From Lachnospiraceae bacterium (GTDB taxonomy: Bacteria > Bacillota > Clostridia > Lachnospirales > Lachnospiraceae): 48,754 bases of DNA. The notes under the pieces were generated by a model, which ran no database searches, had not been told where the DNA came from, and saw only the letters and a list, made by a program, of their open reading frames with translations. Positions 37,254 through 48,754 of the stretch are shown here, one piece after another. The position numbers were made by a program, and so were the translations under genes. The stretch lies in NCBI GenBank assembly GCA_017513625.1, contig JAFXEW010000109.1, positions 1 through 48,754 on the forward strand. The letters are read 5' to 3'. Each line of letters opens with the position of its first letter. Within the stretch, counting starts at the first letter, position 1.

Positions 37254-40200
37254 TTATACACGCTCTATGGAAATGATTGCCTTTTCACCGTTGATATCCC
37301 AATCCTTAGAGATGGAATAGGTCTCACCGGACACAATGCTGTCTGCCAGAACCTTAGCAGCAATCATATCCTTATTTGCCTCTACAACTGTTGCCAGCTT
37401 GGCATTGTCATTCAATGATACTCTGATGTGGTCCATTACCTCGAAATCAGCTTCCTTACGCATGGTCTGTATCTTACTGATTACCTCATATACATAGCCT
37501 TCTTCGATAAGTTCAGGTGTCAGATTGGTATCCAGCACTACAGTTACAGTATTGTCAGCCTCGGTTACATAGCCTTCCTTCTGTGCGATGTTAATCAGTA
37601 AATCTTCTTCAGCCAGCTTTACTTCCACACCGTCTACTTCAAAGGAAATGAAACCGTTTGCCTTCAGGTCATCCATTGCACCGTTACCATCAATGGTAGC
37701 CAGCGTCTTCTGGATGCCGCCCATCTGCTTGCCGTACTTAGGTCCCACGGTACGCAGCTGGGGCTTAAAGGTATAGGATGTGAATTCTCTCACATCATCT
37801 GTAAATACAACCTTCTTTACATTCAGCTCGTCACGGATAATCTCCTGATAGAACTCATCCAGTACAAAAGGAGCCTTGATAAACATATTGCCGATGGGCT
37901 GACGATTCTTGATGGTTGCTGCATTTCTGCATGCACGGCCCATTACTACAGCCTTCAGGACATTTTCCATATTATTTTCAAGCTCTGTGTCAATCCATGC
38001 TTCGTTAGCAACAGGGAAATCACACAGATGGATACTTTCAGGTGCATTTGCATCCACGCTTCTTACCAGGTTCTGATAAATATCCTCAGTCATGAAAGGA
38101 ATCATGGGTGCTGCAGTCTTAGCGATGGTTACCAGCGCGGTATAAAGTGTCATGTACGCATTAATCTTATCCTGCTCCATGCCCTTTGCCCAGAAACGTT
38201 CACGGCCGCGTCTTACGTACCAGTTACTCATTTCATCTACAAAGGAGTCCAGTGCTCTGGCAGCCTCGGGAATCCTGTAATTGCCCAGATGGTCATCCAC
38301 AGCCTTTACTACAGAGTTCAGCTTGGACAAAAGCCACTTATCCATTACGGTTAACTTATCATATTCTAAGGTGTATTTGGATGCATCAAATCCGTCGATA
38401 TTTGCATACAGCACAAAGAATGCATAGGTATTCCACAGAGTACCCATAAACTTACGCTGACCTTCCTGCACTGCCTTGCCATGGAAACGGTTGGGCAACC
38501 AGGGTGCGGAGTTGATGTAGAAGTACCATCTGATGGCATCTGCACCATAGGTCTCCAGCGCCTCAAAAGGATCCACTGCATTTCCCTTGGACTTACTCAT
38601 CTTCTGGCCGTTCTCATCCTGTACATGACCCAGTACGATTACATTTTCATAAGGAGCCTTGTTAAATAACAGGGTAGAAATCGCCATCAGGGAATGGAAC
38701 CATCCTCTGGTCTGGTCCACTGCCTCAGAAATAAACTGTGCAGGGAACTGCTGCTCAAATAATTCTTTATTTTCAAAAGGATAATGATGCTGTGCAAAAG
38801 GCATTGCACCGGAGTCAAACCAGCAGTCGATTACTTCCGGTACTCTGTGCATTGTCTTGCCGCAATCGGGACATACAAAGGTTACTTCGTCAATATAAGG
38901 TCTGTGCAGCTCTACCTGCGCATCTGCGGACTTGCCACTGCGCTCTGCCAGTTCTGCGCGGCTGCCGATACATTCCTGATGTCCGCACTCACACTCCCAG
39001 ATATTTAAGGGAGTACCCCAATAACGGTTACGGGAGATTGCCCAATCCTGAATATTCTCCAGCCAGTTGCCAAAACGTCCCTTACCGATGGATTCGGGAA
39101 TCCAGTTTACCGTATTGTTATTACGGATTAAATCATCCCTTACCGCAGTTTCCCTGATATACCAGGATTCACGTGCATAGTAGATAAGGGGAGTGTCACA
39201 TCTCCAGCAGTGAGGATACTCATGCTCAAACTTAGGTGCCTCGTACAATTTGCCTGCAGCATCCAGATCTTTCAGAATCACAGGATCAGCGTCCTTTACA
39301 AACATACCTGCGTAATCGGTTTCCTCTGTCATCTCACCCTTGCCGTTTACAAACTGAACGAAGGGCAGGTCATACTTACGTCCTACCTGGGCATCATCTT
39401 CACCGAATGCAGGCGCGATATGTACGATACCTGTACCGTCGGACATGGTAACATAACCGTCACAGGTCACATAATGTGCTTTTTTGTTCTGCTTTGCTGC
39501 CACATCCACAGCCCAGGGGAAGAGGGACTCATACTCTTTGTACTCCAGATCTTTACCCTTGTAAGTCTCCAGCACTTCGTATGCTTCCACGCCGTTTTCC
39601 TTGTCAGCCAGTCTGCCCAGTACCGCATCCAGCAGTGCCTGTGCCATATAATAGGTACGACCGTCAGCAGCCTTTACCTTGCAGTAATTTTCATCAGGAT
39701 TTACACAAAGTGCCACGTTAGAGGGCAAAGTCCAGGGTGTGGTAGTCCATACCAGGAAGTATGCATCTTCACCGGTCACTTTAAAGGATGCAATCGCAGA
39801 ACGCTCCTTTACAGTCTTATAGCCCTGGGATACCTCTGCAGTGGACAGAGGGGTACCGCAACGGGGACAATAGGGAACAATCTTAAAGCCTTTGTATAAA
39901 AGGTTCTTGTTCCAGATTTCCTTTAATGCCCACCATTCGGACTCAATGAAATCATCATCATAGGTAACGTAGGGATTGTCCATATCAGCCCAGAAACCAA
40001 CGGTTCCGGAAAAATCCTCCCACATTCCCTTATACTTCCATACAGATTCCTTACACTTACAGATAAAGGGCTCCATACCGTATTCTTCAATCTGTTCCTT
40101 ACCATTCAATCCCAGAAGCTTTTCCACCTCCAGCTCTACGGGCAGGCCATGAGTGTCCCATCCTGCCTTACGGGGCACCATATATCCTTTCATGGTACGG

Positions 40201-40412
40201 TATCTGGGGATCATATCCTTGATAACACGTGTCAGTACGTGTCCGATATGGGGCTTACCGTTTGCGGTAGGCGGTCCGTCGTAAAAAGTATAGGTAGGGC
40301 CTTCCTTGCGGCTTTCCATACTCTTTTCAAAGATATTGTTTTCTTTCCAGAACTGCTCTACATTTTTTTCACGCTCAACAAAATTCATGCTGGCTGATAC
40401 CTGTTTGTACAT
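37254..40412 (-). CDS. ileS: Isoleucyl-tRNA synthetase
   Basis: A class I synthetase that charges tRNA-Ile, with an editing domain against valine. HIGH appears as PHIGH (54-58) and KMSKS at 604-608; the CP1 editing domain has TTTPWTLPSNVALC near 223-236. Zinc-like cysteine pairs occur at CPRCG (182-186) and in the insert CECGHQEC / CPDCG. The 1052-aa length and the long C-terminal region are of the eukaryote-like IleS2 type, the group often insensitive to mupirocin; that assignment is from length and layout only. GGAAGGA lies five bases before the ATG. Expression is controlled by the upstream isoleucine T-box. Confidence 0.96.
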   Translation of the reverse strand: MYKQVSASMNFVEREKNVEQFWKENNIFEKSMESRKEGPTYTFYDGPPTANGKPHIGHVLTRVIKDMIPRYRTMKGYMVPRKAGWDTHGLPVELEVEKLLGLNGKEQIEEYGMEPFICKCKESVWKYKGMWEDFSGTVGFWADMDNPYVTYDDDFIESEWWALKEIWNKNLLYKGFKIVPYCPRCGTPLSTAEVSQGYKTVKERSAIASFKVTGEDAYFLVWTTTPWTLPSNVALCVNPDENYCKVKAADGRTYYMAQALLDAVLGRLADKENGVEAYEVLETYKGKDLEYKEYESLFPWAVDVAAKQNKKAHYVTCDGYVTMSDGTGIVHIAPAFGEDDAQVGRKYDLPFVQFVNGKGEMTEETDYAGMFVKDADPVILKDLDAAGKLYEAPKFEHEYPHCWRCDTPLIYYARESWYIRETAVRDDLIRNNNTVNWIPESIGKGRFGNWLENIQDWAISRNRYWGTPLNIWECECGHQECIGSRAELAERSGKSADAQVELHRPYIDEVTFVCPDCGKTMHRVPEVIDCWFDSGAMPFAQHHYPFENKELFEQQFPAQFISEAVDQTRGWFHSLMAISTLLFNKAPYENVIVLGHVQDENGQKMSKSKGNAVDPFEALETYGADAIRWYFYINSAPWLPNRFHGKAVQEGQRKFMGTLWNTYAFFVLYANIDGFDASKYTLEYDKLTVMDKWLLSKLNSVVKAVDDHLGNYRIPEAARALDSFVDEMSNWYVRRGRERFWAKGMEQDKINAYMTLYTALVTIAKTAAPMIPFMTEDIYQNLVRSVDANAPESIHLCDFPVANEAWIDTELENNMENVLKAVVMGRACRNAATIKNRQPIGNMFIKAPFVLDEFYQEIIRDELNVKKVVFTDDVREFTSYTFKPQLRTVGPKYGKQMGGIQKTLATIDGNGAMDDLKANGFISFEVDGVEVKLAEEDLLINIAQKEGYVTEADNTVTVVLDTNLTPELIEEGYVYEVISKIQTMRKEADFEVMDHIRVSLNDNAKLATVVEANKDMIAAKVLADSIVSGETYSISKDWDINGEKAIISIERV

Positions 40413-42310: not shown

Positions 42311-43588
42311 ATGAAAAATAAGTCGCGCGGCAAGATTGCCTATACCTTACATGCCATATACACGCTACCCATGATTTTTTTATGCGTCCTTATTATTATT
42401 CTCACGGAATACAGTGTGGGAAGTGCCATGAAAAAGGAAGTGGAAAAATCACTGCGGAGTGTATCCGGCAACATTACCCAGATGCTGGACCTGGCCTATC
42501 CCGGCGACTACCGTCTGGAGGGAGACACCGCCTATTCCATTTATAAAGGTGACCACAATCTCACCTCTGATTCGGCTTTGGTGGACCAGATTAAAGATAA
42601 TACAGGGCTGGATGTTACCCTTTTTTATCAGGATACCCGCATTCTTTCCACCATCCGTGATAAAAACGGCCAGCGGCTTATCGGCTCCGCCGCCCCCGCC
42701 ATGGTACTTGAGAATGTGCTGAAGGGCCGGACTGCCACTTTTTATGATGACACTATTATTTTTGGTACCCACTATTTTGCCTATTACACACCCTTACTTA
42801 ATGAGGACGGCAGTGTTGCGGGAATGCTGTTTGTGGGCAAACCGTCCGATGACGTGAATGCAGCAGTACAGCAATGTGTTATTCCTTTACTGGCGGCAGT
42901 GTTACTGGTAATTCTGATTATTACGGTTAGCATTCTTATATTTACGAGCAAATTTGTCACCGACCTGTTGCGCATAAGGGTCTTTCTTTCGGAGGTTTCT
43001 TCCGGAGAAATGACTGCCGTATTGCACAAGTCAGTACTGCAAAGAAATGATGAATTACGCGATATCGGCTTCAGGGCCATGAATATGCAGCGTTCCCTAT
43101 GTTCTCTGCTGGAACATGACACACTGACCCAGCTGTACAACCGCCGTTTTGCCAACCGTAAATTAAAAGAAATCATGTCCAAGTCCCTGCAAAACGGCAC
43201 GCCCTTTTCCATTGCCATGGGTGATATCGACTACTTCAAAAAAATCAACGATACCTATGGTCATGACGGCGGAGATATAGTACTGCAGAAAATATCTGAA
43301 GTCCTCCGCAACAAAATGCGCCTCCACGGTTTTGTAGCCAGATGGGGCGGCGAAGAGTTCTTCTTCGTATTTGACCACGAGGATGGAGAGGCCTCCTGTC
43401 AGGTATTGACGGAGCTTTTACAGGAAATCCGTGAACTGGAGATTCCCTATGGGGAACAGCATATAAAGGTGACCATGACTTTCGGTATTGCTTGTATGGC
43501 CACCGATGACATGGATGCCCTTATTAAAATTGCCGACGAGAAACTCTACGCCGGCAAAGAAGCGGGCCGAAACCGCATAATTGTTTAA
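42311..43588 (+). CDS. Membrane diguanylate cyclase with extracytoplasmic sCache-like sensor
   Basis: A 425-aa protein. Transmembrane helices at about 12-32 and 190-212 flank an extracytoplasmic domain (about 35-188) of single-Cache type (GQRLIGSAAPAMVLENVLKG, YTPLLNEDGSVAGMLFVG). A short HAMP-like linker leads to a GGDEF domain (about 265-425). The active loop is GGEEF (346-350) and the substrate/metal Asp lies in GDIDYFKKINDTYGHDGGD, so it should make c-di-GMP from GTP. The inhibitory I-site RxxD reads RLHG (337-340), missing its Asp, so product feedback is probably lost. It follows the radical SAM gene by 80 bases and may share its transcript. It fits the motility theme of the window. Confidence 0.93.
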   Translation: MKNKSRGKIAYTLHAIYTLPMIFLCVLIIILTEYSVGSAMKKEVEKSLRSVSGNITQMLDLAYPGDYRLEGDTAYSIYKGDHNLTSDSALVDQIKDNTGLDVTLFYQDTRILSTIRDKNGQRLIGSAAPAMVLENVLKGRTATFYDDTIIFGTHYFAYYTPLLNEDGSVAGMLFVGKPSDDVNAAVQQCVIPLLAAVLLVILIITVSILIFTSKFVTDLLRIRVFLSEVSSGEMTAVLHKSVLQRNDELRDIGFRAMNMQRSLCSLLEHDTLTQLYNRRFANRKLKEIMSKSLQNGTPFSIAMGDIDYFKKINDTYGHDGGDIVLQKISEVLRNKMRLHGFVARWGGEEFFFVFDHEDGEASCQVLTELLQEIRELEIPYGEQHIKVTMTFGIACMATDDMDALIKIADEKLYAGKEAGRNRIIV

Positions 43589-44949: not shown

Positions 44950-46038
44950 ATGAAATATATCATAGATAAAGAAAACCGCCCGGTATATCTGCAACTTTAT
45001 AAGCAGATACGTAATGACATTATCGCCGAAAACTACCCCTATAATACAAAGCTCCCTTCCAAACGCAGTCTCTCCGAAGAAACAGGTGTCAGTATCATCA
45101 CTGTAGAACATGCATATGCCCTGCTTTGCGAGGAAGGTTACTTAGAATCCAGGGAACGAAGCGGCTATGTGGTTATTTTTCGAAAAACGGACGGTTTTGC
45201 AGCTTCAGAAGAGCTCCCCACCGCACATACATCCCATAATGCCTCGCATACCTATCCGGAGTTCCCGCTATCCCTGCTCAGTAAGACTATGCGCAAAGTA
45301 TTAACCGAACGCAGCGACCTGCTGCTTGAAAAATCTCCCAACTGCGGATGTATGGAATTACGTGAAGCCATCCGTCACTATCTGGCCAGGAACCGGAACA
45401 TACAAGTCGCTATGGACCAGATTGTAATCGGTTCGGGCTCGGAATATCTCTACGGACTTATTGTGGAACTGCTTGGAAGACATCACACTTATGCCATAGA
45501 GGCCCCATCCTACAAAAAGATTGAACAGGTTTACAAAGTGGCTGAAATCAACTACGACCAACTTCCGTTGACACAATCCGGTATTGACAGTAAGGCACTC
45601 GCCCACACAAAGGCTGACGTACTGCATACAACACCTTACCGAAGCTATCCCAGCGGTGTTACTGCAACTGCATCCAAGCGCCACGAATATATTCGATGGG
45701 CAGCGCGTAATGGCCGCTATATCATCGAAGATGATTTTGAATCAGAGTTTTCGGTTTCCAACAAACCCACCGAAACGCTTTTTGCACTCTCCGGTCGTGA
45801 TAATGTCATCTACCTGAACACCTTCTCTAAAACCATCTCTCCCTCTCTGCGTATCGGATACATGGTGCTCCCCGGGCACCTGGTGGCTGAATTTCATAAA
45901 AAGCTTGGTTTCTACTCGTGTACGGTACCTACTTTCATGCAGTACGTTCTTACTGAGCTCATCAATAGCGGAAATTTTGAAAGACATATCAATCGGGTGA
46001 GAAGGAATAAACGTAAGGAACTTCTAGGGCAGAAATAA
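44950..46038 (+). CDS. MocR/PdxR-type GntR-aminotransferase regulator, C-terminally truncated
   Basis: Residues 1-75 are a GntR winged helix-turn-helix (YKQIRNDIIAENYPYNTKLP, SIITVEHAYALLCEEGYLES). Residues 100-362 are a fold-type I aminotransferase-like domain with the DDFESEF aspartate (near 261) and the PLP lysine in NTFSKTISPS (Lys294). Full-length MocR proteins are about 450-500 aa. This one stops at 362, in the helix after HINRVRRNKRKELL, and its last codons lie inside a perfect hairpin. The missing piece is not found downstream in any frame, so it looks like a 3' deletion. AAGGAG is 16 bases from the ATG, unusually far. It is divergent from an ECF S component, its likely target. It may be non-functional. 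Confidence 0.8.
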   Translation: MKYIIDKENRPVYLQLYKQIRNDIIAENYPYNTKLPSKRSLSEETGVSIITVEHAYALLCEEGYLESRERSGYVVIFRKTDGFAASEELPTAHTSHNASHTYPEFPLSLLSKTMRKVLTERSDLLLEKSPNCGCMELREAIRHYLARNRNIQVAMDQIVIGSGSEYLYGLIVELLGRHHTYAIEAPSYKKIEQVYKVAEINYDQLPLTQSGIDSKALAHTKADVLHTTPYRSYPSGVTATASKRHEYIRWAARNGRYIIEDDFESEFSVSNKPTETLFALSGRDNVIYLNTFSKTISPSLRIGYMVLPGHLVAEFHKKLGFYSCTVPTFMQYVLTELINSGNFERHINRVRRNKRKELLGQK

Positions 46039-46081
46039 GTAAAAGCGTCGCAACTTAGCGACGCTTTTACTTATTTCTGCC
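46028..46081. terminator. Perfect 24-bp-arm hairpin at the truncated MocR end
   Basis: Arms 46028-46051 and 46058-46081 are exact reverse complements around the loop AACTTA. The core AAAAGCGTCGC / GCGACGCTTTT is a bidirectional-terminator type; the outer 13 bp extend it. The left arm supplies the last codons and stop of the MocR gene. Confidence 0.85.
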
Positions 46082-46107: not shown

Positions 46108-46293
46108 TTATTCCGCTACATCACTTACATCTTTAGCATAATACGCTGCCAGCTGTTCCTCTAACCGGTTTTCTTCCTGCTTCGCTTTGTGATTCTTATA
46201 CAGATACAAGGCAATGACACCGATGAATACCAGCAGTGCGGGGATATCCCACCAGGTGAACTTCATAACTGTATGTTCAATAATGTATTGCAT
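46108..46293 (-). CDS. Tiny bitopic membrane protein (61 aa)
   Basis: Not recognised. A short N-terminal stretch is followed by one membrane helix (about 13-32, WWDIPALLVFIGVIALYLY), a basic patch (KNHKAKQ) and a Glu/Leu-rich helix (EENRLEEQLAAYY). GGAGCGGAGG lies just before the ATG. It is the last of three same-strand genes that start with the large surface protein, 17 bases after the 64-aa gene. Its TM-basic-helix layout repeats that of the surface protein C-terminus and the 64-aa protein. Confidence 0.75.
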   Translation of the reverse strand: MQYIIEHTVMKFTWWDIPALLVFIGVIALYLYKNHKAKQEENRLEEQLAAYYAKDVSDVAE

Positions 46294-46310
46294 ATTCCTC
46301 CGCTCCTTTC

Positions 46311-46505
46311 CTAGTTATTCATCTCCGGATTTGTCTGCTGAATCATATCAGCCAGTTTTTTCTCATATGCTTCTTCACGCTTTTTGGTATTGCGTCTGTG
46401 TACACACCCTATGATTACCATCAACACTGCAAGAATCAGTGCAGGCAGGGTCCAGAAGCACATGTTCCATGTTTCATGTAAAAAATTATATAAGTCTAAC
46501 CACAT
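46311..46505 (-). CDS. Tiny bitopic membrane protein (64 aa)
   Basis: Not recognised. An N-terminal aromatic segment (MWLDLYNFLHETWNMCFW) leads into a membrane helix (about 17-37, TLPALILAVLMVIIGCV), then a basic patch (HRRNTKKR) and a charged helix (EEAYEKKLADMIQQ). An AGGGGG ribosome site lies in the end of the surface-protein gene, and the ATG is six bases past that gene's stop, so translation is probably coupled. Same layout as the 61-aa protein next to it. Confidence 0.78.
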   Translation of the reverse strand: MWLDLYNFLHETWNMCFWTLPALILAVLMVIIGCVHRRNTKKREEAYEKKLADMIQQTNPEMNN

Positions 46506-46511
46506 GCCTAT

Positions 46512-48754
46512 TTACCCCCTGTTCTTCCACTGGATTTCTTCCAGTTTCGCTTTTAATTCATAAATTTCTTCCTGATGCTTTTTCATCTTTCTGGTGTATG
46601 ACATTAAGATAATACATGCTGCCAGCATTAAAAGGAAGCTGGTGATGTTGCAGGCATGGTCGCCGTGGATATTTGCCAGAGGCACTTCATTGTCCTCGAT
46701 AGGCACCAGATGTGCCTTGCCCTCATCATCTATAATCACCACTGCGTCTGTTATCTCTTCCGGCTCCTCCGGTGTAGGATCTACGGGTGTAGGGTCTACG
46801 GGTGTGGGATCCACGGGTGTAGGATCCACGGGTGTGGGATCCACAGGCGTAGGGTCCACGGGTGTAGGGTCTACGGGCGTAGGATCCACGGGTGTAGGAT
46901 CCACGGGTGTAGGATCTACGGGTGTGGGATCTATGGGTGTAGGATCCACAGGTGTGGGATCTACGGGTGTAGGATCCACAGGTGTAGGATCTACAGGTGC
47001 AGGGGGATTCGCCGTATATGTTACGGTAAATTCCAGATTCTGGGCCGGCATTCCGTTTTCATCACTGCTTATGGAGCTATAATTCGGTGTATATCCCGAA
47101 ATCACGGGAGATGCCACATTGAAGGCTTCTCCTACGGCGATTGCTGCACTATAGTCCTCAGCCATGGTTTTACCTGTTGTATCCACATAATGAATGGTCA
47201 GCAGGTAGGTAGGAATGGGGCGTACTTCCAAAGTACCGTATGTTACGGTAAACTCATAATTATCAGCCTTAGTGCCCTCTGACAGTGTGTAGGTAAAGGT
47301 ATTATCACTCTCACCTACCTCCCTTTGGGAACCTGTCACATCATAGCTTGCTCCTTCACCTTCGGCAAAACCATCTCCGCTGATAGCCACCACACTTTGT
47401 GTAAGTGCTTCACCGTTATAGGTCTTCACAGCAGATGCGGAAGCCAGGATTACGTTTCTCTTTGTAATCTCCAGTTTACCCTCTTCAATTACAAATCTGA
47501 CATCAAAATTAGGATTGGTATTAACAAAGTCTGATGCCTGCAATTCCATTTCATAGATGCCTGCATCCTTGCCGCTCACCTGTGCGTTTCCTTCAAATCG
47601 GAAGTCTTCTGCAGTATACAGCGGATTACTGATATCGGTAATCTCATATCCCTGCAAAGTCTTTTCTGTACCATCATATAAATAGCTACCGCTGTTTTCC
47701 GTAATGGTTACCACTACTTCCTCTGCCTTGGTAACAGTCAGCAGACCATCTGTTACGGTTACTTCGTAATTATCGGTTACATCTCTTTCTCCGTCCACGA
47801 TCCTGAGGTCTGTTATCACATTTGCAGATGTACCTGCGTCCGTACGGCTGCCCTCAGTCATTGCACGGAGCTGATGACCCTGTACCAGAGCTGCCTCATC
47901 ATAAATCACTGTTTCGCAGGTAAGGGGCTGACCGTCGTAATCCTTTGCAGAAGAACCCGCAGTCACGGACAATGCTCTTTTTGTAATCTGCAACTCACCA
48001 TCCGCAACAGTAAAGGTTACATTCTTAAAGTTAGGATTTACATTGGTAAAATCTTCCTCTGTAAGACCCATTGCATAAATACCTGCATTTGTAGCGCTTA
48101 CAAATGAATCTCCTGCAAATACAAAATCATTTGCCATATATAAAGGATTGCTGATAGTTACATTGTAGCCTTCTGCCACATGCTCTAAGCCATCGTACAC
48201 AGCTACTTCCTTTGTTCCCAGAATGGTGACTTCCACATTTTCCACCGGTGCAATGGTCAGACTTCCGTCTACGATTATGAAAGTTACCTTTGTAAAATTG
48301 GAATTGGTATTTACAAAATTCTCAGGCTGCAGTTCCATCTCATAACTGCCTGCAGCGGTTCCCTTCACTTCTGCATTGCCGCTGAAGATGAAGTCCTCCA
48401 CGGTATATAATTCATTTGTAACAGATATCTCATAACCGGTTACGGACTTTTCGTTGCCATCATATACATAGCTGCCGCTGTGCTCCGTAATGGTTACAAC
48501 CACTTCATCCGCCGCGCCTACAGTCAAAGTACCGTTTACAGTGGTGATGTCATAGTTCTCTGCCTTGGTATTCTCATTCAATGTATAAGTAAAAGTATTC
48601 TCACTGCTTCCTGCCAGAGTCTGACTGCCGGTTACGGTATATGCCGCTCCTTCGCCCTCTGCAAAATCTTCGCCGCCCACGGTTACTTCTTCTGCGGTCA
48701 GGGCACTTCCGTCATAGCTCTTACTTGCGGACGCACTGGTCAGGGTCACTGCAC
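46512..48754 (-). CDS. Large repeat surface protein (MBG-like and MucBP-like modules), N-terminus outside window
   Basis: Partial; the frame is open through the right edge, and the first visible GTG (48749) is not a real start. The visible 745 residues hold about six beta modules of 75-90 aa in two alternating types. One carries KSYDGSALT..GFAEGEGA..NTFTYTL. The other carries SGSYVYDGNEKSVTGYEI..AGSYEMEL..NFVNTN, typical of MBG-type adhesin repeats. A MucBP-like module (YLLTIHYVDTTGKTMAEDYS) follows, then 15 VDPTP pentapeptides and a C-terminal membrane helix (about 705-722, CNITSFLLMLAACIILMSY) with a basic, then charged helical tail. No LPXTG motif is present, so it is held by the helix rather than a sortase. 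Two tiny membrane proteins follow directly. Confidence 0.88.
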   Translation of the reverse strand, partial: AVTLTSASASKSYDGSALTAEEVTVGGEDFAEGEGAAYTVTGSQTLAGSSENTFTYTLNENTKAENYDITTVNGTLTVGAADEVVVTITEHSGSYVYDGNEKSVTGYEISVTNELYTVEDFIFSGNAEVKGTAAGSYEMELQPENFVNTNSNFTKVTFIIVDGSLTIAPVENVEVTILGTKEVAVYDGLEHVAEGYNVTISNPLYMANDFVFAGDSFVSATNAGIYAMGLTEEDFTNVNPNFKNVTFTVADGELQITKRALSVTAGSSAKDYDGQPLTCETVIYDEAALVQGHQLRAMTEGSRTDAGTSANVITDLRIVDGERDVTDNYEVTVTDGLLTVTKAEEVVVTITENSGSYLYDGTEKTLQGYEITDISNPLYTAEDFRFEGNAQVSGKDAGIYEMELQASDFVNTNPNFDVRFVIEEGKLEITKRNVILASASAVKTYNGEALTQSVVAISGDGFAEGEGASYDVTGSQREVGESDNTFTYTLSEGTKADNYEFTVTYGTLEVRPIPTYLLTIHYVDTTGKTMAEDYSAAIAVGEAFNVASPVISGYTPNYSSISSDENGMPAQNLEFTVTYTANPPAPVDPTPVDPTPVDPTPVDPTPIDPTPVDPTPVDPTPVDPTPVDPTPVDPTPVDPTPVDPTPVDPTPVDPTPVDPTPEEPEEITDAVVIIDDEGKAHLVPIEDNEVPLANIHGDHACNITSFLLMLAACIILMSYTRKMKKHQEEIYELKAKLEEIQWKNRG
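46771..46995 (-). repeat. 15-copy tandem 15-bp repeat encoding VDPTP
   Basis: Fifteen contiguous 15-base units inside the surface protein gene; 14 encode VDPTP and one (46921-46935) IDPTP. Units vary at third positions (GAT/GAC, CCT/CCC, ACA/ACG-type changes), so the array is not freshly amplified. It forms a stiff Pro/Asp stalk between the MucBP-like domain and the membrane helix. Confidence 0.95.

What the first reader, a model, noticed from the sequence alone, without database searches (positions are those of the whole stretch)
46108..48754. Surface repeat protein with two tiny partner-like membrane proteins sharing one TM-basic-helix design
Three adjacent same-strand genes end (surface protein) or consist (61 and 64 aa) of one membrane helix, a basic stop-transfer patch and a highly charged helix. 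Spacing is 6 and 17 bases, implying tight co-expression. The surface protein lacks LPXTG, so the charged cytoplasmic helices could assemble with each other to anchor, cluster or secrete the giant adhesin. I know of no named system with this makeup; the idea of a three-part anchor is inference.
Basis: partly seen in the sequence, partly recalled or inferred. Interest (0 to 1): 0.8.

Follow-up and report, generated by a model that had tools for sequence, protein, structure and literature searches.

The report
Adhesin tail with small membrane partners
A gut-bacterial surface adhesin without the usual cell-wall anchor ends in a membrane tail that, in related bacteria, is usually followed by one or two tiny membrane-protein genes of a so far unnamed family, which hints at a dedicated way of holding such adhesins on the cell.

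Summary
The window ends inside an MBG/MucBP adhesin gene (at least 746 aa, cut by the contig end) with no LPXTG and a C-terminal membrane helix, basic patch and amphipathic helix. Two single-helix genes (A 64 aa, B 61 aa) follow at 6 and 17 bases. A and B are homologous families; the window's two pass no Pfam or NCBIfam cut-off. In 397 family genomes, 13 of 18 strong tails have small gene(s) directly downstream, one has a divergent pair, four have none adjacent. In a scan seeded by the tail alone, 15 of 15 tails in 13 loci have them. All 17 two-gene loci found carry one A then one B. In accessory-Sec loci the small gene follows this tail (5 of 5) and is absent beside LPXTG or W-rich tails (0 of 6). 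Two draft genomes with two cassettes each show no sortase. Best reading: a sortase-independent membrane-retention module with A and B as dedicated partners of the tail. Covariation at a shared His/Cys motif ranks first among tail-small pairs but does not beat tree simulations (90-203 of 500 reach it).

The parts
46512..48752 (-). 3' part of the adhesin gene (at least 746 aa; start lies beyond the contig end)
   Evidence: Open frame; Pfam MBG 3.8e-12 in 4 stretches, MucBP 7.5e-5; window is the whole contig
46771..47003 (-). 15-bp tandem repeat coding a P(V/I)DPT stalk before the tail
   Evidence: Tandem repeat finder, 15.5 copies; 15 P[VI]DPT matches in the protein
46515..46751 (-). C-terminal tail domain: EVPLAN box, HACNITS segment, membrane helix, basic pair, amphipathic helix
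   Evidence: Alignment with 16 relatives; hydropathy; profile matches in other genomes
46311..46505 (-). Small gene A, 64 aa, one membrane helix, N-out/C-in by charge, H-x5-C before the helix
   Evidence: Frame; A-family alignment; A side of the tree
46108..46293 (-). Small gene B, 61 aa, one membrane helix, WWDIPAL entry motif; the family Cys is Thr here
   Evidence: Frame; B-family alignment; B side of the tree
46028..46081 (.). Perfect 24-bp inverted repeat with 6-nt loop, probable two-way terminator after B (inferred; the consensus terminator scan did not list it)
   Evidence: Inverted repeat; scan

Best explanation
The three genes are a sortase-independent display module. The adhesin is exported and stays in the membrane by its C-terminal helix. 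A and B, oriented like the tail with the C-terminus inside, are dedicated subunits that pack against the tail in the membrane and through parallel amphipathic cytoplasmic helices, so that the adhesin is held (perhaps clustered or spaced) without a wall linkage. Shown here: linkage to this tail type, one A plus one B in fixed order wherever there are two, common ancestry of A and B, shared design and helix register, presence in two draft genomes without detected sortase. Inferred: physical contact, stoichiometry, the retention role. A weak profile match to the 'doubled motif LPXTG' domain suggests, without proving it, that the tail comes from a wall-anchor signal that lost its sortase motif.
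For: Linkage: 13 of 18 strong tails in 397 genomes and 15 of 15 tails in 13 loci. Natural control: 5 of 5 accessory-Sec adhesins with this tail have the small gene, 0 of 6 with LPXTG or W-rich tails. A then B in 17 of 17 two-gene loci. Stop-start overlaps between adhesin and A at four junctions (L109, L114) and between A and B in L090. Shared register and amphipathicity above all 300 shuffles in each of three sets. No sortase found in G475 (95% complete, also met as G769) nor in G768. hhalign of B and A against the tail: probability 88 and 76, weak and open to TM-composition bias.
Against: No direct contact evidence. Four of 18 strong tails have no small gene adjacent, though their genomes have one elsewhere, and one has the pair on the other strand. 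The L080 tail with an HDCFIHW segment has no match to A or B beside it. Most cassette genomes also have sortases (17 of 19, the window's included). The best covarying tail-small pair is reached by chance in 90 to 203 of 500 simulations, by score. The window copy has lost two of the shared His/Cys positions.
Confidence: 0.5

Rival explanations
1. A and B are translocation or membrane-insertion helpers (SecE-, SecG- or YajC-like) that help long repetitive adhesins through Sec or help the tail leave the channel sideways.
For: In five genomes the small gene lies between a serine-rich-repeat adhesin and a SecY2-like gene. Six of 17 B-type members match YajC weakly, best E 0.0056. Streptococcal Asp4 and Asp5 are small SecY2 partners (PMC5076819, passages).
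Against: Absent from 6 of 6 accessory-Sec loci whose adhesin has another tail. No Asp4 or Asp5 family among all matches up to E 1 of the window's two proteins. No Asp3 match in the window's genome, which is 81.8% complete.
Confidence: 0.2
2. A and B serve controlled processing or release: a linked S26 signal peptidase (or another protease) cuts at the PLA box or near the membrane and A/B present or protect the tail.
For: S26 gene in 11 of 31 loci scanned (Pfam PF10502 confirmed for 7 of these). GGDEF gene upstream in 6 of 31. Pro of the PLA box was the only invariant column of 17 tails.
Against: No S26 homologue of this type found in the whole window nor in 19 other loci scanned, some of which are short or reach it only with a weak or cut-off match (L095, L101). 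The peptidase may simply process the N-terminal signal.
Confidence: 0.13
3. A and B are small membrane proteins of unrelated function (stress, toxin-like or holin-like) that only share the operon.
For: Single-helix proteins with charged tails are common; weak scattered database matches.
Against: Linkage to one tail type in 12 genera of 334 drawn, fixed order and stop-start coupling, absence beside other tails.
Confidence: 0.1
4. The PLA box is an unusual sortase signal and A/B are adaptors for a sortase.
For: The PLA box is shared with a tail that passes the doubled-motif LPXTG model (G361, 49.0 bits); 17 of 19 cassette genomes have sortases.
Against: No sortase detected in G475 and G768, each with two cassettes, where the box reads TPAG or APAG.
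Confidence: 0.07

Closest known systems
Doubled motif LPXTG anchor domain (NCBIfam NF033073) and sortase sorting signals
   Same: Acidic EExxPLA box before a C-terminal membrane helix and basic end; window tail matches at 21.4 bits over model positions 19-66
   Different: No LPXTG; below the curated cut-off of 48; long amphipathic cytoplasmic helix; dedicated small genes
Asp4/Asp5 of the streptococcal accessory Sec system (PMC5076819, passages seen)
   Same: Small membrane proteins coded with a large adhesin; five accessory-Sec loci here carry a B-type small gene before a SecY2-like gene
   Different: Asp4 has one TM with a SecE-like amphipathic domain and Asp5 two TM; here one TM followed by a cytoplasmic helix, no such family match for the window proteins, and mostly no accessory Sec locus nearby
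SipA-like signal peptidases of sortase pilus loci (PMC4049620, abstract start only)
   Same: A signal-peptidase-family gene beside a surface-protein operon in 11 of 31 loci
   Different: SipA is described there as signal-peptidase-like and essential for pilus polymerisation; here no pilus sortase was seen in the operon and SM.PTL plus KR motifs are kept in six of 11 by pattern
C. difficile CD2831 type c-di-GMP-regulated adhesins (PMC6447587, abstract start only)
   Same: Adhesin with a possible c-di-GMP link: GGDEF gene upstream in 6 of 31 loci
   Different: CD2831 was described as a sortase substrate; here no LPXTG, and c-di-GMP control is only suggested by gene order

Membership tests
Sortase-anchored LPXTG proteins (incl. 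NF033073) | LPXTG-like motif before the C-terminal membrane helix | tested here: not met
   No [LIVN]Px[TSA]G in the 746 aa
Sortase-anchored LPXTG proteins (incl. NF033073) | Score over the NF033073 cut-off of 48 bits | tested here: not met
   Window tail 21.4 bits, E 1.9e-4
Sortase-anchored LPXTG proteins (incl. NF033073) | Sortase present in the genome | tested here: inconclusive
   Three sortase matches in the window's genome, but none found in G475/G769 and G768, which carry two cassettes each
Accessory Sec Asp4/Asp5 | Match to the Asp4 or Asp5 family | tested here: not met
   Not among all Pfam matches up to E 1 of the two window proteins; for other members only 25 families were shown
Accessory Sec Asp4/Asp5 | Locus with SecY2, SecA2 and Asp1-3 | tested here: not met
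   No Asp3 match in the window's genome (81.8% complete); its only SecY2-model match scores 161.5 of 249.6 bits, as an ordinary SecY would. Met in relatives G049 and G359
Named C-terminal sorting domains (CTERM and similar models in NCBIfam) | Tail over the cut-off of a sorting-domain model | tested here: not met
   Window adhesin 0 families up to E 0.1; window tail only NF033073 and one unrelated model, both below cut-off
This cassette (tail + A + B) | Tail followed by A then B on the same strand | tested here: met
   Window order and gaps
This cassette (tail + A + B) | Physical heteromer of tail, A and B | not testable with these tools
   Structure tool off

The most novel reading that the evidence does not exclude
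A new kind of surface-protein anchor: a three-subunit membrane complex in which the adhesin tail (H-x-C-C-x-x-H), A (H-x5-[H/C]) and B (H-x5-C-W-W-D) build one metal-binding or redox site at the outer membrane face, so that holding or releasing the adhesin can respond to metal or redox state, with c-di-GMP control from the upstream GGDEF gene. Cys/His swaps at the +6 position of A favour a metal ligand. The window's own copy has lost two of these positions (tail Ser, B Thr).
Probability: 0.2. Interest if true: 0.85.

Novelty: new variant of a known kind. Interest (0 to 1): 0.66.

Why it matters
How Gram-positive gut bacteria hold large adhesins without sortase is poorly known (general knowledge). 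Here a short C-terminal tail predicts one or two specific small genes in at least 12 genera, and the small gene is missing where the same kind of locus uses LPXTG or another tail. That makes the question directly testable by gene removal in cultured commensals. It also gives a possible role to tiny genes that annotation often skips, and a marker for finding more adhesins of this type.

Tried and rejected
Covariation. Of 3102 tail x small (B, single, accessory-Sec type) column pairs over 26 loci, tail His(+6) x small Cys(+6) ranked first by both scores. Over 31 loci the tail His is present in 26, all with Cys or His in the small protein, and absent in 5, none with Cys or His (29 rows plus two read by eye; three near-duplicate loci included; one row, G265, pairs a tail and small genes from different contigs). 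But simulations without coupling on the joint tree reach the top score in 90 of 500, the top z in 118 of 500 and the MI-APC top in 203 of 500. I keep it as a lead only. Tail-A and A-B comparisons were ruled by single odd loci.

Mobile origin: no relatives confirmed in viral contigs (tail query), and no plasmid or phage match (one B-type query). Solved structures: no match for the tail, two chance-level ones (E 0.52, 0.63) for the small family.

Weak tail hits. Of the rows weaker than 1e-10, 17 loci (L065-L081) were looked at. L067 (G320) is a true cassette. The others are PLA-box tails with other TM types, one with an ordinary PKTG signal (L076), or unrelated TM ends, and showed no A or B match in the stretch held. 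L080 (G303) has an HDCFIHW tail and no small single-TM frame beside it, only a 102-aa two-TM frame. Dropped before counting: rows weaker than 1e-6 or in long frames (G221 at 5e-7 in a 509-aa frame), G359 excepted and named; G422 and G102 (long frames); rows in long frames or with stops inside, apart from G049, whose small gene was read as a 48-aa frame.

NCBIfam and PHROGs gave no usable name for the small family. Papers: eight searches showed, in listings and abstract starts, nothing describing the cassette; only PMC5076819 was opened, passages only; 'doubled motif LPXTG' returned no paper.

Full report
What is there. The finding lies at the end of a contig that is the whole window. On the minus strand run the 3' part of an adhesin gene (46512-48752, at least 746 aa) and two short genes, A (46311-46505, 64 aa) and B (46108-46293, 61 aa), with gaps of 6 and 17 bases. 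The adhesin has MBG in four stretches and MucBP and a P(V/I)DPT stalk coded by a 15-bp tandem repeat. Its last 80 residues hold an EVPLAN box, the segment HACNITS, a hydrophobic helix, a basic pair and a charged helix; no LPXTG-like motif is found. A perfect 24-bp inverted repeat lies just past B (46028-46081) and probably ends the operon, though the terminator scan did not list it.

A and B. Profile comparison shows that they are homologous (hhalign probability 99.3, E 2e-20). The A consensus has H-N-x-L-G-x-H-F-W-D-x-P-A-L, a TM, then V-H-x-x-N-Q-K-K-R; the B consensus has H-T-x-x-G-F-C-W-W-D-I-P-A-L-I, a TM, then K-K-E-E-x-E-L-E-D. The window's two proteins pass no curated cut-off in Pfam or NCBIfam. 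For the other members only 25 of 39 and 25 of 36 matching Pfam families were shown, with best E-values of 0.00031 and 0.001 among those. In a tree of 46 small proteins, A is one side of a branch (97/89); B with the accessory-Sec type and two single-gene members lies together (100/99); seven single-gene members lie on the A side outside A. Rows are short and long-branched rows (the window's A among them) are unsure. In all 17 loci found with two small genes there is one A followed by one B; nine further loci have a single gene and three of the accessory-Sec type were in the tree.

Linkage. Among 99 relatives the tail query matched 4 genomes, B 8 and A 6; the true matches fall together in G007, G052 and G067. 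In 397 genomes of the family the tail profile gives 34 genomes at E<=0.001, of which 18 tails in 13 genomes reach 1e-10. The small-gene profile gives 48 genomes at E<=0.001, of which 13 (12 genera of 334) have matches below 1e-6 in short frames. Of the 18 strong tails, 13 have the small gene(s) directly downstream on the same strand, one has a pair on the other strand beside it (G197 C2), and four have none adjacent (two in G182, one in G481, one in G265). All 13 strong-tail genomes have a small gene somewhere; in G359 it is a 41-aa frame whose match is 1.4e-5. Conversely, 13 of the 15 small-gene places in the 13 small-gene genomes follow a tail directly; G320's tail scores only 1.2e-5. A second scan of the 84,980-species collection, by the single tail pattern [DGN]H[KAI]CCILH (41 stretches, 13 confirmed), gave 13 loci with 15 tails, all followed by small genes. 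In 373 genomes drawn from the order only G067, of another family, was added. In a genus draw 7 of 101 genomes matched. The cassette is rare but spread: named records include Faecalicatena contorta, Schaedlerella arabinosiphila, Dorea sp. D27 and Drancourtella massiliensis. From these I infer that the window is from Lachnospiraceae; no call names it.

A natural control. Twelve of 397 genomes have Asp3 of the accessory Sec system over the cut-off, the window's genome not among them; four more accessory-Sec-type loci came from the genus (G049, G018, G040, G013). Where the adhesin tail next to the SecY2-like gene can be read, five have a tail of the present type (G049, G018, G359, G040, G013), and all five have a small gene of 41-49 aa between the two. 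The SecY2-like proteins of G049 and G018 score best against SecY2 models but below their cut-offs; those of G359, G040 and G013 were judged by position and look. Six have another tail, a true LPKTG (G361) or a W-rich TM without LPXTG (G380, G349, G401, G455, G389), and none has the small gene. G409 shows no readable TM tail and G247, G250, G364, G282 no adhesin frame next to SecY2 in the stretch held; these five are not counted. So the small gene follows the tail, not the channel. The G361 tail passes the NF033073 'doubled motif LPXTG' model (49.0 bits, cut-off 48), the G380 tail reaches 28.9, the G018 adhesin 27.2 and the window tail 21.4; the PLA box may therefore be a common inheritance. 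LPXTG-free PLA-box tails with other TM types are seen in further genomes of the family.

Sortase. Of 19 genomes with the cassette or its accessory-Sec form, 17 have sortases, the window's included with three; G475 (95% complete) and G007 (59% complete) have none. G475/G769 and G768 carry two complete cassettes each. The module can thus exist without a detected sortase, but these are drafts of what look like related lineages, and the completeness of G768 is not told.

How it may work. The window's three proteins have the same orientation by charge. Across the sets, hydrophobic residues peak at +5 after the first basic pair in the tail (0.62 of 29), A (0.59 of 17) and B-type (0.75 of 28), then near +8/+9 and +12/+13, more weakly in A; mean hydrophobic moments exceed all 300 shuffles in each set. 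On the outer side most tails have H-x-C-C-x-x-H, most A H-x5-[H/C] (three have one residue less) and most B H-x5-C. The simplest reading is a heteromeric bundle that retains the adhesin. Contact is inferred; the covariation lead does not beat tree simulations. Neighbours give hints: an S26 signal peptidase in 11 of 31 loci scanned, a membrane GGDEF protein upstream in 6 of 31 (all six were in the profile used, and all match Pfam GGDEF), a sigma-factor gene in 4 of 31. Many stretches are short, so these are lower bounds. The window has no such S26 or sigma match; its own GGDEF gene (42311-43588) has an sCache domain and is of another type.

The window's copy. It keeps order and design, but the last His of the tail motif is Ser, the second Cys is Asn, and the Cys of B is Thr. 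It is one of five such loci out of 31, so the metal or redox reading would apply to it only partly.

Verdict. The anchor model is the best reading but unproven, and the emphasis should move from cytoplasmic charge alone to the whole membrane bundle.

Noticed in passing
window 44950-46038 (+): GntR/MocR-type regulator whose aminotransferase domain stops at profile position 269 of 361; its stop codon lies in one arm of the 24-bp inverted repeat, so the gene looks shortened.
   Followed up: partly
L109 and L114: Two consecutive cassettes, each with its own A and B, separated by a 138-aa single-TM gene, in genomes without detected sortase; the box reads TPAG or APAG instead of PLA.
   Followed up: partly
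L066, L070, L077, L079, L081; L128, L130, L131, L133, L135: Surface-protein tails with a PLA-like box and a W-rich membrane helix but no LPXTG and no small partner: perhaps another sortase-free tail type.
   Followed up: partly
L087 and L088: Adhesins of the same genomes without an adjacent small gene have lost the KKRQ-type helix, and are followed by a multi-TM GGDEF-like gene.
   Followed up: no
window 37254-40412; L110 14820-17969; L111 12968-16117: Isoleucyl-tRNA synthetase-like gene (window: Pfam; others by their first residues) lies a few kilobases downstream of the cassette in both lineages, which hints at shared synteny.
   Followed up: no
L004 and L005 (G067 C8 and C4): Two contigs end at the same point inside the adhesin tail, which suggests several near-identical copies that broke the assembly.
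   Followed up: no
L080 around 1477: Tail with HDCFIHW before the membrane helix but no A/B match; a 102-aa two-TM frame lies beside it instead.
   Followed up: partly
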